Shown here one piece after another: positions 1 to 5,794 of a DNA stretch of 5,978 nucleotides. Source of the stretch: Planctomycetota bacterium (lineage in GTDB: Bacteria > Planctomycetota > Phycisphaerae > FEN-1346); contig JAPLMO010000446.1 in assembly GCA_026386995.1 (NCBI GenBank), forward strand, positions 1-5,978, given 5' to 3'. The translations under genes were made by a program, and so were the position numbers. Each line of letters begins with the position of its first letter. The first letter of the stretch is position 1. The notes under the pieces are model-generated. The model searched no databases, was not told the DNA's origin, and saw only the letters and a program-made list of their open reading frames with translations.

Positions 1-1140
1 TTTACCACGGGCATGTGCCCGGCCCGATGGCGGATCACCAGTTACCTTCAGACGCGCGAGGGCAACCGGATCGACCAGCAGGCCGACTGGCTCGACCCGA
101 AGGCGCCGACGCTCGCCCGCACGCTCCAGGCCGCAGGCTACGCCACCGGCCACTTCGGCAAGTGGCACATGGGCGGCGGCCGCGACGTGGACAACGCGCC
201 GCTGCCGCAGGAGTACGGCTTTGACGAGAGTTGGACCACCTGGGAGGGCATGGGGCCGGGCATCGACAACGACCCTGCGGCCAAGGGCACGCCGCGCTTC
301 CGCCGCACGCAGAAGTTCGTCGAGAAGGCGATGGACTTCATCCGCCGCGCGAAGGGCCGCCCGTTCTACGTCAACATCTGGCCCAACGACGTGCACGACC
401 CGCACGTGGCCGACCCGGAGTTGCGGTCGAAGTACGACACCGCTCCGCCGGGCCACCAGGACTTCAATGCCGTGCTCGATGAGTACGACCGCCAGTTCGG
501 GCGGCTGCTCGATTTCCTCCAGGCCGAGGGGCTGGCCGAGAGCACCATCGTGATTTTCTCCAGCGATAACGGGCCGAACCCGCCGTTCCAGGGCCACCGG
601 CGCACCGGGGGTCTGCGCGGCATGAAGTGGAGCCTCTACGAGGGCGGCATCCGCATGCCCTTCATCGTGCGCTGGCCCGGGCGCATCCCCGCCGGCAAGG
701 TGGACGAGCGGACCGTCGTGGGCGCCGTGGACCTGCTGCCGACGGTCTGCGCGCTGGCGGGCGTCGCCCCGCCCGTGGGACCGGAGTTCGACGGCGAAGA
801 CATGAGCCGCGCGTGGCTCGCCGCGCCGCAGGACCGCACGCGGCCGCTCTTCTGGGAGTACGGCCGCAACACGCACTTCCTCTACCCGGCGGTGCGTTAC
901 AGAGTCGGCAAGGACAAGAAGGCGGACGATCTTTATCCGGACGTGAAGAACGACCGGAGCCCGAACTTAGGCGTCCGCGAAGGCAAGTGGAAGTTGCTCG
1001 TCAGCGCCGACGGCAGCGGGGCGGAACTCTACGACATTGCCACCGACCCAAAGGAAACCACGAACCTGGCCGAGAAGGAGCCCGCCACCGCCGAGCGCCT
1101 GGCCGACAAGGCGCTGGCTTGGCGGAAGTCGTTGCCGTGA
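1..1140 (+). CDS. Sulfatase, 5'-truncated by the window edge, with an atypical active-site motif
   Basis: This is the C-terminal 379 residues of a formylglycine-type sulfatase, which would hydrolyse sulfate esters. The reading frame is open from base 1, and the ATG at 13 lies inside the active-site region, so the real start is upstream. Judging from the Cys position in the neighbouring genes (85-87), about 80 residues are missing. Visible landmarks in order are: the active-site segment T-G-M-C-P-A-R (bases 7-27); the GKWH motif (Lys 160-162, His 166-168); the H-D-P-H segment (His at 394-396 and 403-405); the metal-binding S-S-D-N-G (Asp 565-567, Asn 568-570); the substrate-side Lys in R-G-M-K (625-627); and a C-terminal subdomain with R-E-G-K-W-K-L-L followed by E-L-Y-D and E-T-T-N-L. 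The motif is odd: Cys-to-Arg spacing is three, not four (see findings). The segment after it (Y-L-Q-T-R-E-G-N) also differs from the L-T-G-R-Y of genes 2 and 3, so this is another subgroup. The family call is secure; activity and substrate are not. Confidence 0.93.
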   Translation, partial: FTTGMCPARWRITSYLQTREGNRIDQQADWLDPKAPTLARTLQAAGYATGHFGKWHMGGGRDVDNAPLPQEYGFDESWTTWEGMGPGIDNDPAAKGTPRFRRTQKFVEKAMDFIRRAKGRPFYVNIWPNDVHDPHVADPELRSKYDTAPPGHQDFNAVLDEYDRQFGRLLDFLQAEGLAESTIVIFSSDNGPNPPFQGHRRTGGLRGMKWSLYEGGIRMPFIVRWPGRIPAGKVDERTVVGAVDLLPTVCALAGVAPPVGPEFDGEDMSRAWLAAPQDRTRPLFWEYGRNTHFLYPAVRYRVGKDKKADDLYPDVKNDRSPNLGVREGKWKLLVSADGSGAELYDIATDPKETTNLAEKEPATAERLADKALAWRKSLP

Positions 1141-1159
1141 GCGTTATGCACACCCGAAC

Positions 1160-1173
1160 GGAGAAGAACTACG
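1160..1173 (+). promoter_or_regulatory. Ribosome binding site and ACG start codon of gene 2
   Basis: GGAG at 1160-1163 is followed by 7 nt and then ACG at 1171-1173. Genes 4 and 5 have GGAG, 7 nt and ATG with identical spacing, and gene 3 has AAAGG, 7 nt and ATG. Starting at 1171 puts the twin arginines at residues 6-7, exactly as in genes 3, 4 and 5. No ATG, GTG, TTG or CTG lies in frame between the gene 1 stop and the Arg-Arg codons (1186-1191). The site is therefore either a real near-cognate start or an ATG changed to ACG. Confidence 0.75.
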
Positions 1174-2691
1174 AACGTCCTCAACCGTCGCGAGTTCCTG
1201 AAGTGGTCTGCCGCCGTGGCCGCGGCGATGGCGCTGCCGAAGTGGTCGAGCGCCGCCGGGCCCGCCCTCGCCGGCAGGCGGCCCAACATCGTCTACATCC
1301 TCGCCGACGACCTGGGCTACGGCGACATCGCTTGCCAGAACCCCAGGTCGAAGATCCCCACGCCGAACCTCGACCGGCTGGCCGCGCAGGGCGTCCGATT
1401 CACCGATGCCCACGCCCCCACGGCCGTCTGCACGCCAACGCGCTACGCCATCCTCACCGGGCGCTACGCGTGGCGCTCGGCGCTTAAGCGCGGCGTTCTC
1501 GCGCCATACGGCAAGACGCTGATCGAGGCCGGCCGCCTGACCGTTCCGGCCATGCTCAGGCAGGCCGGCTATGACACGGCGTGCATCGGCAAGTGGCACC
1601 TGGGCTGGCAGTGGCCGACGACCGACGGCAAGCCCGTCGCTTACCAGAAGGACGGGTCGAGCAACGTGGACTTCACTAAACCCGTCGCCGAGGGACCCAC
1701 GACGCGCGGCTTCAACACCTACTTCGGCACTGACGTGCCCAACTACCCGCCGTACTGCTTTATCGAGAACGACCACCTGCTGGGTCTGCCGTCGATACCC
1801 AAGCCGAAGACGATGTTCGGCAACCCGGGGCCGATGATCGAAGGTTGGGACCTCGTCCGGATTCTGCCGACCCTGGCGAAGAAGGCGGTGGAGTGCGTCG
1901 AGAAGGCCGCCAAGTCGCCGGACAAACCGTTCTTCCTCTATTTCCCGCTCACCTCGCCGCACACGCCCATCGTGCCCGCGCCGGAGTTCAAGGGCAAGAG
2001 CGGGGCGGGCGATTACGGCGACTGGGTCCACCAGACCGACTGGACCATCGGCCAGGTTCTCGACGCCATCGACCGCTGCGGCCTGGCCGAGAACACGCTC
2101 GTTATCTTCGCGAGCGATAACGGGCCGGAGAGTTTCGCTTACGCGCGCATCCGCGAGTTCGGCCACTACAGCATGGGCGACCTTAGGGGCCTCAAGCGCG
2201 ATGCCTGGGAAGGCGGTCACCGCGTGCCCTTCATGGCCCGCTGGCCCGGCCGCATCAAGCCCGGCACGACCAGCGGCGAGATAGTCTGCCACGCGGACCT
2301 CATGGCTACGCTGGCGGCCATGCTGGGCATCCGCCTGCCGGACGATGCCGCCGAGGACAGTTACAACATCCTGCCGGCCCTGCTGGGCGAGAAGTTGGAG
2401 ACGCCCATCCGCGAGGCCACGGTGCATCACAGTTGCAACGGCAAGTTCGCCATACGCCGGGGCGACTGGGTCTTCATCGACGCCCCCACCGGCGACGACA
2501 ACAAGGAGCCCGACTGGCTGAAGAAGGAGCGGGGTTACGAGCCGCACAACTTCCCGGGCGAACTCTACGACCTCTCGAAGGACCTGGGCGAACGCCGCAA
2601 CCTGTACGCCGAGCACCCGGAGATCGTGCAGCGCCTCAAGGCCCTGCTGGAGAAGTACAAGGCCGAGGGCCGAAGCGCCCCGCGAGCGTGA
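1171..2691 (+). CDS. Tat-exported sulfatase, probable ACG start
   Basis: This is a 506-residue sulfatase read from ACG at 1171. An in-frame GTG (1216) and ATG (1228) exist, but using them would remove the twin-arginine motif N-R-R-E-F-L-K (residues 5-11) that all visible neighbours have. After the Tat leader (hydrophobic stretch to about residue 30) come metal ligands D46-D47 in I-L-A-D-D-L-G-Y, the formylglycine motif C87-T-P-T-R followed by L-T-G-R-Y, GKWH (K141, H143), S-P-H-T-P (H264), A-S-D-N-G (D316, N317), L-R-G-L-K (K342), and a C-terminal subdomain with E-L-Y-D-L. All expected catalytic and metal residues are present. The product would be exported and remove sulfate esters; the substrate is unknown. 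It is closest within the window to the next gene, sharing A-E-N-T-L-V-I, E-G-G-H-R and the G-R-S-x-P tail. It starts 30 nt after gene 1 and ends 11 nt before gene 3, consistent with cotranscription. Confidence 0.93.
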   Translation, partial: TNVLNRREFLKWSAAVAAAMALPKWSSAAGPALAGRRPNIVYILADDLGYGDIACQNPRSKIPTPNLDRLAAQGVRFTDAHAPTAVCTPTRYAILTGRYAWRSALKRGVLAPYGKTLIEAGRLTVPAMLRQAGYDTACIGKWHLGWQWPTTDGKPVAYQKDGSSNVDFTKPVAEGPTTRGFNTYFGTDVPNYPPYCFIENDHLLGLPSIPKPKTMFGNPGPMIEGWDLVRILPTLAKKAVECVEKAAKSPDKPFFLYFPLTSPHTPIVPAPEFKGKSGAGDYGDWVHQTDWTIGQVLDAIDRCGLAENTLVIFASDNGPESFAYARIREFGHYSMGDLRGLKRDAWEGGHRVPFMARWPGRIKPGTTSGEIVCHADLMATLAAMLGIRLPDDAAEDSYNILPALLGEKLETPIREATVHHSCNGKFAIRRGDWVFIDAPTGDDNKEPDWLKKERGYEPHNFPGELYDLSKDLGERRNLYAEHPEIVQRLKALLEKYKAEGRSAPRA

Positions 2692-2705
2692 AAGGCTAAC
2701 CGATG
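2691..2705 (+). promoter_or_regulatory. Ribosome binding site of gene 3, overlapping the gene 2 stop
   Basis: AAAGG at 2691-2695 shares its first A with the TGA of gene 2 and ends 7 nt before the ATG at 2703. This tight arrangement suggests that genes 2 and 3 are translated from one message, possibly with coupling. Confidence 0.6.
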
Positions 2706-4127
2706 CCATCGATCAGCCGTCGGGACTTCCTGGCGTGGGCGGCCGGCAGCGCCGCGGCGCTGGCCCTGCCGCGCTGGCTCACGGCTGCGCAGAACACTGC
2801 GGCCGGCAAGCCGAACATCATCTTCATCCTCTTCGACGACCTGGGTTACGGCGAGCCGCCGGTTTTCCGCAAGGACTCGCCCTTCAAGATGCCGAACCTC
2901 GACCGCCTGGCCCAGGAGGGCGTCAGGTTCAGCGACGCCCACAGCGCCGCGGCCGTGTGCACGCCCACCCGCTACGGTGTTCTGACGGGGCGCTACCCGT
3001 TCCGCATCGGTCAGTTCGGCGTGCTCAACTTCGCCTCCAAGCCCATCATCGAGAAGCAGCGAATGACGGTTGCCTCAATGCTCAAGGCTCGCGGCTATTA
3101 CACCGCGTGCTTCGGCAAGTGGCATCTCGGGATGGATTGGGGCGGCGTGAAGGCCGAGGCCGCCGCCAAGGCCGACACGCCTGTCGCCGACGGCCCAACG
3201 ACGCGCGGGTTCGACGTCTTCTGCGGCTACACCGAGGCCCGCAGCATCCGCACGGTGATCGAGAACGACCGCGTTCTTGGCACGTACGAGCCCGTCGAGG
3301 TCCAGCCGCTGATGGCGAAGAAGGCCGTGGAGTACATAGATGCGCGGGCCAAGGACGGCAAGCCGTTTTTCATCTACCAGCCGCTGAGCATCCCGCACTT
3401 GCCGCATGTGCCCGCCAAGGAGTTCGAGGGCAAGAGCGGGCAGGGGGCCTACGGAGACTGGATCTTCGAGGGCGACTGGGTGGTCGGCCGGATTCTCGAG
3501 GCGCTCCAGCGTAACGGCCTCGCCGAGAACACGCTCGTCATCGCCTCCAGCGATAACGGGGCCGAGGGCCGCGAGTATCCGCCGCTTCGCGGCTCGAAGC
3601 GGAGCATCTACGAGGGCGGGCACCGCGAGCCTTTTGTCGCCCGCTGGCCGGGCAAGATCAAGCCGGGCACGGTTTGCGAGGACACGGTCTGCCTGAACGA
3701 CCTCCTGGCCACGTGCGCCGAGATCGTGGGCGAAAAGTTGCCCGACGGCGCGGGCGAGGACAGCGTCAGCATTCTGTCGCATCTTCTCGGCACCGCGAAG
3801 GGGCCCGTCCGCGAGGCCACCGTCCACCAGTCGGCGGCCGGCGACCTGGCCATCCGGCAAGGGCCGTGGAAGTTGATCTTCTTTAAGAACGGCAATCGCG
3901 AACTCTACAACCTGAAGGACGATCTCGGCGAAACCAGGGACGTGCTGGCCGCGAACCCGGAGATAGTCGAGCGCCTGACGAAACTCATGCAGCAGTACAT
4001 CGACAACGGCCGCAGCACGCCTGGCGCGCCGCAGAAGAACGGCATCAGTTTCGCGCTGCCCAAGTCTGTTGCCGCGGGCGCCGGCGAAGAGGGCGGCGAA
4101 GGAAAGAAACACAAGAAGAAGCAATAG
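2703..4127 (+). CDS. Tat-exported sulfatase with a lysine-rich C-terminal tail
   Basis: This is a complete 474-residue sulfatase. The start is supported by the AAAGG site 7 nt upstream and by a near-consensus Tat motif, S-R-R-D-F-L (residues 5-10), followed by an Ala/Leu-rich stretch to about residue 29. Catalytic landmarks are D45-D46 in F-D-D-L-G-Y-G, formylglycine motif C86-T-P-T-R, GKWH (K139, H141), I-P-H-L-P-H (H232), S-S-D-N-G (D284, N285) and L-R-G-S-K (K299), so the active site looks intact. The C-terminal subdomain contains A-I-R-Q-G-P-W-K-L-I and E-L-Y-N-L. It is a paralogue of gene 2, but it lacks that protein's insert between DNG and the active-site Lys and has a shorter C-terminal subdomain. 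After G-R-S-T-P-G it carries about 33 extra residues ending in a Gly/Glu-rich then Lys-rich tail (G-K-K-H-K-K-K-Q). The exported product would cleave sulfate esters; its substrate cannot be inferred. Confidence 0.96.
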   Translation: MPSISRRDFLAWAAGSAAALALPRWLTAAQNTAAGKPNIIFILFDDLGYGEPPVFRKDSPFKMPNLDRLAQEGVRFSDAHSAAAVCTPTRYGVLTGRYPFRIGQFGVLNFASKPIIEKQRMTVASMLKARGYYTACFGKWHLGMDWGGVKAEAAAKADTPVADGPTTRGFDVFCGYTEARSIRTVIENDRVLGTYEPVEVQPLMAKKAVEYIDARAKDGKPFFIYQPLSIPHLPHVPAKEFEGKSGQGAYGDWIFEGDWVVGRILEALQRNGLAENTLVIASSDNGAEGREYPPLRGSKRSIYEGGHREPFVARWPGKIKPGTVCEDTVCLNDLLATCAEIVGEKLPDGAGEDSVSILSHLLGTAKGPVREATVHQSAAGDLAIRQGPWKLIFFKNGNRELYNLKDDLGETRDVLAANPEIVERLTKLMQQYIDNGRSTPGAPQKNGISFALPKSVAAGAGEEGGEGKKHKKKQ

Positions 4128-4160
4128 CAGCCGGCCACATCGCCGCACGAGCATCAGCCA

Positions 4161-4174
4161 GGAGAAGAGAAATG
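4161..4174 (+). promoter_or_regulatory. Ribosome binding site of gene 4
   Basis: AGGAGAAG (GGAG at 4161-4164) ends close upstream of ATG 4172, with 7 nt between GGAG and the start. It fixes the start of gene 4 and serves as the template against which the gene 2 ACG site is compared. The 44-nt gap before it shows no terminator-like hairpin with a T run. Confidence 0.7.
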
Positions 4175-5683
4175 CACGGACACACGCGGCGAGACTTCCT
4201 GAAGTATGCCGGCGCAGGCGCTGCGGCCCTGGCGATGCCGAAGTGGCTGGGCGCGGCCGAGCCGGGCCTCGCCGGCAGGCGGCCCAACATCATCGTCGTC
4301 CTGACCGACGACCAAGGCTACGGCGACATCGCCGCCAACGGTAACCCCAAGATCAAGACGCCCAACATGGACCGCATGCACGACGAGGGCGTCCGGTTCG
4401 AGGATTTCCACGTCAGCCCCACCTGCTCGCCCACGCGGTGCTCGCTGATGACCGGGCGGCACGAGATGAAGTCGGGCGTCACGCACACCATCCTGGAACG
4501 CGAGCGGATGAGCCTGAAGGCCACGACCGTCGCGCAGATCCTCAAGTCCGCCGGCTACGCGACCGGCATCTTCGGCAAGTGGCACCTGGGCGACGAGGCC
4601 GACCACCAGCCCGACAAGCGCGGCTTCGACGAGGTGTTCATCCACGGCGCGGGCGGCATCGGCCAGTCGTACCCGGGCAGTTGCGGCGACGCCCCGGGCA
4701 ACACGTACTTCAGCCCCGCGATCCTCCACAACGGCAAGTTCGAGAAGACCGACGGTTACTGCACCGATGTTTTTTTCGGCCAGGCGATCAAATGGCTGGA
4801 CGAGAAGCGCAAGGCCGGCGGGCCGTTCTTCGCCTACATCACGCCCAACGCGCCGCACGGGCCGCTGCAATGCCCGGAGGACTACATCAAGAAGTACGAA
4901 GGGCAGGGCCTTACGCCGCAGGAGATGGCCTTCTTCGGCATGATCACCAACATCGACGACAATCTCGGCCGCTTGCTCGCTAAACTCGCCGAGTGGGGCA
5001 TCGAGAAGAACACCCTCGTTATTTTTATGAACGACAACGGCGGCACGGCCGGCGTGAAGGTCTTTAACGCCGGGATGCGCGGCAGCAAGAACTCGCCGTA
5101 CAACGGCGGCACGCGCGCGGCATCGTTCTGGCGATGGCCGGGGACCCTGAAGCCCGTTGTGGTCGACAAACTTACCATGCACCGCGACGTTTTCCCGACG
5201 CTGGCCGAACTGGCCGGCGCGAAGGTGCCCAACGACGTGGCCGCCAAACTCGACGGCCGTAGCCTCGCGCCGCTTCTCGCGGACTCAGCGGCCGCGTGGT
5301 CCGACCGCTACGTTTTCACCCACATCGGCCGCTGGCCGAAGGGGAAGGCGGCGGAGTCGAAGTACGCCGGCTGCAGCGTCCGCAGCCAGCGCTACAACAT
5401 GGTCAGCCACGGCAAGGGCGGCGGCAACGGGAAGTGGGAACTCTACGACCTCAAGGCCGACCCCGGCGAAACGAAGGACGTGGCCGCCGAGCACGCTGAC
5501 GTCATCAAGGAGATGTCCGCCGCCTACGACAAGTGGTGGGACGAAGTCCTGACGTGCCTCGAAAATGAGGATACCGTCGGGCCGGCCGCAAACCCCTTCA
5601 AGGAACTCTACCGGAAACAGTTCGGCGGCGGGCCGACGGAATCGGACAAGCCCAAGCAGGGCCGCAAGGGCAAGACGCAATGA
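4172..5683 (+). CDS. Tat-exported arylsulfatase-type sulfatase
   Basis: This is a complete 503-residue sulfatase of a different subgroup from genes 2 and 3. It starts at ATG 4172 behind a strong GGAG site. The Tat motif T-R-R-D-F-L-K occupies residues 5-11, followed by an Ala-rich hydrophobic stretch and A-A-E at about 28-30 as a likely cleavage area. Key residues are D46-D47 in L-T-D-D-Q-G-Y-G-D, formylglycine motif C85-S-P-T-R with M-T-G-R, GKWH (K136, H138), N-A-P-H-G-P (H229), M-N-D-N-G-G (D288, N289) and M-R-G-S-K (K306) followed by N-G-G-T-R and F-W-R-W-P-G. The C-terminal part has W-E-L-Y-D-L, D-P-G-E-T, W-W-D-E-V-L and N-P-F-K-E-L-Y-R-K-Q-F-G, an arrangement I associate with arylsulfatase-annotated planctomycete proteins (from memory, not searched). 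The last 20 or so residues are polar and Lys-rich. The active site is intact; the natural substrate is unknown. Confidence 0.96.
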   Translation: MHGHTRRDFLKYAGAGAAALAMPKWLGAAEPGLAGRRPNIIVVLTDDQGYGDIAANGNPKIKTPNMDRMHDEGVRFEDFHVSPTCSPTRCSLMTGRHEMKSGVTHTILERERMSLKATTVAQILKSAGYATGIFGKWHLGDEADHQPDKRGFDEVFIHGAGGIGQSYPGSCGDAPGNTYFSPAILHNGKFEKTDGYCTDVFFGQAIKWLDEKRKAGGPFFAYITPNAPHGPLQCPEDYIKKYEGQGLTPQEMAFFGMITNIDDNLGRLLAKLAEWGIEKNTLVIFMNDNGGTAGVKVFNAGMRGSKNSPYNGGTRAASFWRWPGTLKPVVVDKLTMHRDVFPTLAELAGAKVPNDVAAKLDGRSLAPLLADSAAAWSDRYVFTHIGRWPKGKAAESKYAGCSVRSQRYNMVSHGKGGGNGKWELYDLKADPGETKDVAAEHADVIKEMSAAYDKWWDEVLTCLENEDTVGPAANPFKELYRKQFGGGPTESDKPKQGRKGKTQ

Positions 5684-5716: not shown

Positions 5717-5794
5717 GGGTGCCACGGCTGCGCAGTTTGCAGCCGTGGTCGTTGGCAGGAACGCACGGCTGCAACCTGCGCAGCCGTGGCACCC
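5717..5794. repeat. Composite palindrome: 31-bp inverted repeat containing four alternating 9-bp modules
   Basis: Bases 5717-5747 are the reverse complement of 5764-5794 with a single mismatch (T5736 against C5775). The 16-nt centre can add a further 4-bp stem, CGTT 5750-5753 with AACG 5760-5763, leaving a 6-nt loop. Each arm is itself a hairpin: CACGGCTGC 5723-5731 with GCAGCCGTG 5739-5747, and CACGGCTGC 5764-5772 with GCAGCCGTG 5780-5788, each with a 7-nt loop. The module therefore occurs four times in alternating orientation. No T run follows it on the + strand, so it is not a textbook intrinsic terminator. Its form resembles REP/BIME-type palindromic elements or a small non-autonomous mobile element; no transposase is visible here. 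Confidence 0.9.

What the first reader, a model, noticed from the sequence alone, without database searches (positions are those of the whole stretch)
1160..1230. Sulfatase gene 2 appears to start at ACG
Seen directly: GGAG, 7 nt, ACG at 1171, with the same spacing as GGAG, 7 nt, ATG in genes 4 and 5. Reading from ACG puts Arg-Arg at residues 6-7, exactly as in genes 3, 4 and 5. The first standard in-frame starts other than CTG 1198 are GTG 1216 and ATG 1228; all three lie after the Arg-Arg codons and would give a protein without a Tat signal. Inference: this is either a genuine near-cognate start that lowers expression of one operon member, a T-to-C mutation silencing export or translation, or a base error. 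Automatic annotation would choose 1216 and wrongly call the protein non-secreted.
Basis: partly seen in the sequence, partly recalled or inferred. Interest (0 to 1): 0.7.

Follow-up and report, generated by a model that had tools for sequence, protein, structure and literature searches.

The report
Sulfatase gene with ACG start position
In a run of exported sulfatase genes from an uncultured planctomycete-like bacterium, one gene shows ACG where the best-matching leaders of relatives have ATG as start codon; the gene is otherwise intact, so this is most likely a recent start-codon change or a single base error, and only possibly a rare natural ACG start.

Summary
Gene 2 (sulfatase, PF00884) has no in-frame ATG/GTG/TTG between the preceding stop (TGA 1138) and its Arg-Arg codons at 1186; ACG 1171 is the only near-cognate codon there. 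Four lines place the start at 1171: a Shine-Dalgarno of median strength at normal spacing (GTG 1216, ATG 1228 and ATG 1146 have weak ones); gene-like codon usage from 1171; a Tat-signal match that the 1216 product lacks; and relatives. The best-matching leaders (MNAVN-RREFLKWSAA, MNGLN-RRDFLRWSAA, MKAVS-RREFLKWSAA) align without gaps with TNVLN-RREFLKWSAA, so their Met sits on the ACG. Of 90 Tat-sulfatase frames counted, only this one has no standard start. The protein is intact: 0 departures at 192 columns invariant in 20 homologues. Against the reading: the G002 orthologue also has ACG at that codon, but starts at an ATG three codons on. No reads or near-identical orthologue were available, so a real recent substitution with weak initiation (about 0.48) cannot be separated from a base error (about 0.33); a maintained, working ACG start is possible (about 0.1).

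The parts
1138..1140 (+). TGA stop of sulfatase gene 1, in the same frame as gene 2
1160..1166 (+). Shine-Dalgarno-like GGAGAAG; 7 nt between GGAG and ACG 1171
   Evidence: duplex -6.6 kcal/mol, equal to the median of 89 reference starts
1171..1173 (+). ACG at the likely start-codon position of gene 2; the best-matching leaders have ATG here
   Evidence: codon usage turns gene-like here
1171..2691 (+). sulfatase gene 2 (506 codons from ACG, then stop TGA 2689-2691)
   Evidence: PF00884 E=2.1e-53; CTPTR in the translation (CxPxR motif recalled)
1180..1239 (+). Tat signal matched by PF10518 (residues 4-23 of the 1171 reading), with NRREFLKW and a hydrophobic stretch
   Evidence: 30.7 bits against cut-off 22.7; no match when read from 1216
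1216..1218 (+). GTG, first standard in-frame start; not supported
   Evidence: SD -2.3 kcal/mol, reached by 48.5% of controls
1146..1148 (+). ATG in another frame; would need a frameshift; not supported
   Evidence: SD -2.0 kcal/mol

Best explanation
ACG 1171 sits where the start codon of this Tat-exported sulfatase was: the ancestor had a standard start there, most likely ATG, and this molecule differs from it. I take the change to be a real, recent substitution in this strain. Ribosomes would still be placed at 1171 by the GGAG, but initiation on ACG would be weak, so little exported enzyme is made; gene 2 would be close to silent in an operon of similar sulfatases. Shown: no standard start before Arg-Arg, intact rest of the gene, ATG at this codon in the best-matching leaders. 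Inferred: that the substitution is real and recent, and that expression falls.
For: 1 of 90 Tat-sulfatase frames lacks a standard start, this one. SD -6.6 kcal/mol at 1171. Codon-usage score in the gene frame is -20.5 bits for 1141-1170 and +4.7 bits for 1171-1185; no wrong-frame 5-codon stretch inside the genes reaches 4.68. Of the 5 best DNA matches to the Arg-Arg region in the held loci, 4 have ATG exactly at this codon (L110 MNAVN, L109 MKSPK, L118 MNGLN, L116 MPLLR); P0121 MKAVS and P0122 MNAVN likewise. In L110 and L118, 9 of the 12 bases between start triplet and Arg-Arg match (binomial tail 0.001 each). The gene-2 orthologue of G001 has its ATG five codons before Arg-Arg too. Intact protein: 0 departures at 192 columns invariant in 20 homologues; residues unique to window 34, G001 32, G002 44 of 503 columns.
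Against: No reads, so a base error explains the same facts. All 5 DNA matches lie in one genome (G002), and the fifth (L129) has its ATG two codons before Arg-Arg instead. The gene-2 orthologue of G002 also has ACG five codons before Arg-Arg, as a codon upstream of its real start, ATG two codons before Arg-Arg; 1 such ACG in 89 is what chance would give (1 in 64 codons), but it leaves open that the old start lay at 1180. Other bases after the start triplet match weakly: L109 7, L116 5, G001 3 of 12. That ACG initiates weakly in bacteria is recalled (Hecht et al. 2017, not held), not measured for this organism.
Confidence: 0.48

Rival explanations
1. The ACG is a consensus or assembly error at base 1172; the organism has a standard start at 1171 and nothing unusual happens.
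For: One base explains everything; the best-matching leaders have ATG there; the rest of the gene is intact; no relative seen depends on ACG.
Against: The window shows no other sign of poor sequence: the gene frames are open and gene 2 has 0 departures at 192 invariant columns. An error at just this base is rare a priori (no rate was measured here).
Confidence: 0.33
2. ACG is a genuine, maintained start codon giving low but useful expression of one operon member.
For: Normal Shine-Dalgarno and spacing, intact and not accelerated protein. Native AUU/AUA starts in S. aureus give about 10% of AUG output in poor medium, up to 30% for ccpN in rich medium, and one of them (citZ) is limited to one strain lineage (PMC13009471, section 10 read), so lack of conservation does not exclude it.
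Against: No relative seen depends on ACG. The SD is ordinary, not extended as at infC, cvfC1 and ccpN. Of 61,358 ancestral AUG starts, 363 went to GUG, 113 to UUG, 2 to CUG and 1 to AUU (PMC5622118, section 12 read); ACG does not occur in that paper's text. That annotation rarely allows ACG is recalled.
Confidence: 0.1
3. The old start lay at 1180 (CTC now), as in relatives that begin MN-RR, and was lost by more than one base change; the ACG is a bystander.
For: MN-RR starts are the commonest spacing (31 of 89); the gene-2 orthologue of G002 begins MN-RR and carries ACG three codons before its ATG; the GGAG also pairs at -6.4 kcal/mol with a 12-nt spacing to 1180.
Against: CTC needs two changes from ATG; 12 nt is a long spacing; codons 1171-1179 already look gene-like; leaders closest to this one start at the ACG codon.
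Confidence: 0.04
4. Translation really starts at GTG 1216 or ATG 1228 and the enzyme stays in the cell.
For: First standard starts in frame; the sulfatase domain is complete without the leader.
Against: SD -2.3 and -1.5 kcal/mol, reached by 48.5% and 72.1% of control positions; the codons upstream of 1216 encode a Tat signal matching other signal peptides.
Confidence: 0.03
5. The start is ATG 1146 and one extra base near 1171-1173 (error or mutation) breaks the frame.
For: Codons 1146-1172 in that frame also look gene-like (+5.3 bits; stretch 1158-1172 at 6.67 exceeds every wrong-frame stretch).
Against: Weak SD (-2.0); the gene-like codons GAG AAG AAC overlap the Shine-Dalgarno; the closest leaders align without gap from ACG onward and begin there; Arg-Arg lies 13 or more codons from the start in only 2 of 89 genes.
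Confidence: 0.02

Closest known systems
Tat-exported bacterial sulfatases (PF00884 with PF10518 leader) of Planctomycetota and neighbours
   Same: Domain, CTPTR motif, Arg-Arg leader, tandem sulfatase genes; nearest homologues at 78-87% identity
   Different: ACG instead of a standard start codon
Native non-canonical starts of S. aureus: infC (AUA), cvfC1 (AUU), ccpN (AUA), citZ (AUA) (PMC13009471, section 10 read)
   Same: Near-cognate codon behind a Shine-Dalgarno, expected low output
   Different: Those were seen by ribosome mapping; cvfC1 and ccpN starts are conserved between species and infC, cvfC1 and ccpN have an extended SD. Here: ACG, a single sequence, ordinary SD, no expression data
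Recent start-loss alleles or young pseudogenes (general knowledge)
   Same: Start codon changed by one base, rest intact
   Different: A base error is not excluded here

Membership tests
Sulfatase family PF00884 | Match to the domain model above cut-off | tested here: met
   182.1 bits against 25
Sulfatase family PF00884 | CxPxR motif for formylglycine (motif recalled) | tested here: met
   AVCTPTRYAILTGR in the translation
Tat-exported proteins | Twin-arginine leader recognised by a family model | tested here: met
   PF10518 30.7 bits, cut-off 22.7; but NCBIfam TIGR01409 16.5 bits, just under its 16.7
Tat-exported proteins | Export shown | not testable with these tools
   needs experiment
Native non-canonical start genes | Non-canonical start conserved in relatives (true for cvfC1 and ccpN, not for citZ) | tested here: not met
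   89 of 89 other Tat-sulfatase frames have a standard start; best leaders have ATG. G002's orthologue has ACG at the codon but a usable ATG after it
Native non-canonical start genes | Strong, extended Shine-Dalgarno | tested here: not met
   -6.6 kcal/mol, the median of 89 ordinary starts
Native non-canonical start genes | Initiation shown by ribosome or peptide data | not testable with these tools
   no such data held
Decayed pseudogene | Stops, frameshifts or loss of conserved residues | tested here: not met
   open frame; 0 of 192 invariant columns changed

The most novel reading that the evidence does not exclude
ACG 1171 is a working start codon of a secreted bacterial sulfatase, kept because it sets the enzyme's level low relative to its operon neighbours.
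Probability: 0.1. Interest if true: 0.6.

Novelty: new member of a known kind. Interest (0 to 1): 0.25.

Why it matters
If C at 1172 is real, this is a clean natural case for asking what a bacterial ribosome does when ATG becomes ACG behind a good Shine-Dalgarno, and it shows how start choice limited to ATG/GTG/TTG cuts a Tat leader off such a gene. If it is a base error, it shows how one base in a contig turns a secreted enzyme into an apparently cytoplasmic one. In neither case does it change a general picture.

Tried and rejected
A conserved ACG start in the lineage: looked for in relatives. The only other ACG at that codon among the 90 frames is in G002's gene-2 orthologue, which has an ATG behind it. 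One search covered 397 genomes drawn from a larger class; one search covered the same class and listed the same matches, and the same six genomes, so neither second search added anything.

A frameshift from ATG 1146: considered because of its codon usage, rejected on relatives and Shine-Dalgarno. Starts at 1216 or 1228: rejected. RNA structure at the start: unremarkable, z-score +1.25. Viral contigs: no match.

First count of missing starts gave 2 of 35; the second (L092) came from placing Arg-Arg upstream of its true Met. One search corrected the rule (nearest Arg-Arg) and enlarged the set: 147 sulfatase-like frames, of which 57 without Arg-Arg were dropped, leaving 90. Frames that run off the start of a sequence were left out. 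The 90 are no random sample: 59 come from stretches of four genomes (G001, G002, G003, G005), 14 from genome-search loci, 14 from the search for related loci, 3 from the window. In one search the gene-2 comparison with L002 failed (wrong piece taken); one search replaced it.

A syntenic orthologue: G001 contig C96 (L099) has genes 3 and 4 in the same order (93% over residues 64-307, and 88%), but the contig begins inside gene 3, so gene 2 cannot be seen there. P0123 differs from gene 3 at 10 of 474 residues, so a close strain is in the protein collection, but no gene-2 protein above 87% is listed and its DNA could not be reached.

Literature: searches listed no paper that I recognised from title or abstract start as describing a native bacterial ACG start; (planctomycete Tat sulfatases) was not useful. 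Read: single sections of PMC13009471, PMC5622118 and PMC13232202; passages found by term in these and in PMC11497404, PMC9845219, PMC9841429, PMC3219674 and PMC3305630. Hecht et al. 2017 and Baudet et al. 2010 on Deinococcus deserti non-canonical starts (title seen in reference lists) are not held, so a bacterial ACG start may be described there.

Full report
What is there. The window holds five tandem genes, all on the + strand: gene 1 (cut at the 5' end, stop 1138-1140), gene 2, gene 3 (2703-4127), gene 4 (4172-5683) and the beginning of gene 5 (5832 on). Genes 1 to 4 match the sulfatase domain PF00884; of gene 5 only 49 codons are present, and they match the Tat leader model. No genome is held for the window. 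The nearest loci in the genome collection belong to MAGs named Planctomycetia bacterium (L001) and Planctomycetota bacterium (L002), at 79% and 78% identity to gene 2.

The observation. From TGA 1138 to Arg-Arg at 1186 the gene-2 frame reads GCG TTA TGC ACA CCC GAA CGG AGA AGA ACT ACG AAC GTC CTC AAC, with no standard start. ACG 1171 is the only codon of that stretch one base away from ATG. GGAG ends 7 nt before it, as before the ATGs of genes 4 and 5, and Arg-Arg then falls at residues 6-7 as in genes 3, 4 and 5.

Is it unusual? In 175 sequences (the window and 174 loci, 1.9 Mb, partly overlapping, repeats counted once) I found 147 sulfatase-like frames. Of these, 57 had no Arg-Arg leader and were dropped; of the other 90, 89 have a standard start (nearest: 74 ATG, 12 GTG, 3 TTG) no more than 15 codons before Arg-Arg. 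The window's gene 2 is the one exception. Missing starts are therefore not a habit of the genomes sampled, 59 of the 90 frames coming from four genomes.

Where does translation begin? (a) Shine-Dalgarno: -6.6 kcal/mol at 1171, equal to the median of the 89 other starts and reached by 3.6% of 445 internal control positions; -2.3 at GTG 1216, -1.5 at ATG 1228, -2.0 at ATG 1146; the same GGAG gives -6.4 for CTC 1180 at a spacing of 12. (b) Codon usage, trained on 1896 codons of the window: codons 1141-1170 score -20.5 bits, 1171-1185 +4.7 bits. In the same call the frame of ATG 1146 also scores +5.3 bits up to 1172, a result against a simple reading; I attribute it to the Shine-Dalgarno region being read as GAG AAG AAC. 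(c) Leader: PF10518 fits the 1171 product (30.7 bits, cut-off 22.7) and not the 1216 product; NCBIfam's TIGR01409 falls just short for the 1171 product (16.5 against 16.7).

Relatives. Five places in the held loci match the 30 bases from Arg-Arg on best (23 to 26 of 30; threshold 22). All five lie in genome G002. In four (L110 MNAVN, L109 MKSPK, L118 MNGLN, L116 MPLLR) the triplet five codons before Arg-Arg is ATG, exactly the window's ACG; in the fifth (L129) the ATG is two codons before Arg-Arg. Between start triplet and Arg-Arg, L110 and L118 match 9 of 12 bases, L109 7, L116 5 and the G001 orthologue 3. In the protein collection a search with the first 42 residues returned two proteins, P0121 MKAVSRREFLKWSAAGAAALALPKWSSAA and P0122 MNAVNRREFLKWSAAGAAVLALPKWSMAA: ungapped matches to TNVLNRREFLKWSAAVAAAMALPKWSSAA with Met on the Thr. 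Gene-3 homologues P0125 and P0126 begin VPTVN-RR, with a Val-written start at the same place. The gene-2 orthologue of G001 begins MPITC-RR with ATG at this codon; that of G002 begins MN-RR and has, before its ATG, an ACG at the codon that lines up with the window's. One such ACG in 89 frames is about what chance gives, and the leader of G002's gene 2 (MNRRAFLKQVALGAAAG) is less like the window's than those above, so I read it as coincidence; it is nonetheless the main result against 1171. Among 122 proteins of the first two searches, 48 have an Arg-Arg motif in the first 45 residues, and in 21 of these it begins at residue 6.

Is the gene alive? At 192 columns invariant in the 20 best homologues gene 2 has 0 departures; each of the 20, treated likewise, has 0 to 17. 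In a three-way comparison with G001 and G002 the window has 34 unique residues, the others 32 and 44, of 503 columns. So there is no sign of decay: the change is recent, or an error, or ACG works.

What the literature says. In 36 triples of related genomes, 61,358 ancestral AUG starts changed 363 times to GUG, 113 to UUG, 2 to CUG and once to AUU (PMC5622118, section 12); ACG does not occur in its text. That annotation rarely allows ACG is recalled. Native AUU and AUA starts in S. aureus give about 10% of AUG output in poor medium and up to 30% for ccpN in rich medium; infC, cvfC1 and ccpN have extended Shine-Dalgarno sequences, cvfC1 and ccpN starts are conserved between species, and citZ's is found in one strain lineage only (PMC13009471, section 10). 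A 2026 preprint reports that in reconstituted systems AU-rich codons initiate more and GC-rich ones less, many active codons having U in second place (PMC13232202, section 5), which would disfavour ACG; ACG is not named in its text.

Verdict. 1171 is the ancestral start position (about 0.9). What the C means cannot be settled here: real recent substitution with weak initiation 0.48, base error 0.33, maintained working ACG start 0.1, old start at 1180 0.04, other starts 0.05 together. These weights are judgement; no error rate was measured.

Noticed in passing
window 1171-1260 and 4155-4260; L110; P0004, P0121, P0122, P0124: Nearly the same Tat signal peptide sits on different mature proteins: the gene-2 type on sulfatases (P0121, P0124) and on a BamB-like PQQ protein (P0122), the gene-4 type (MHGHTRR) on a G002 sulfatase (L110) only 40% identical to gene 4 and on a gene-2-like sulfatase (P0004). 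Leader cassettes may be exchanged among paralogues.
   Followed up: partly
window 5717-5794: Inverted repeat between genes 4 and 5: 31-nt arms, 97% complementary, 16 nt apart; the 14-base stretch GTGCCACGGCTGCG has no exact match in the 174 loci held. Possibly a terminator or small mobile element.
   Followed up: partly
window 2703-5683; L099: Genes 3 and 4 keep their order in G001 contig C96 (93% over residues 64-307, and 88%), and the start region of gene 4 (GGAGAA..ATGCACGGACACACG) is nearly identical there.
   Followed up: partly
window 1144-2709, - strand: A 521-codon open frame lies antisense to gene 2; probably a by-product of GC-rich codon usage.
   Followed up: no
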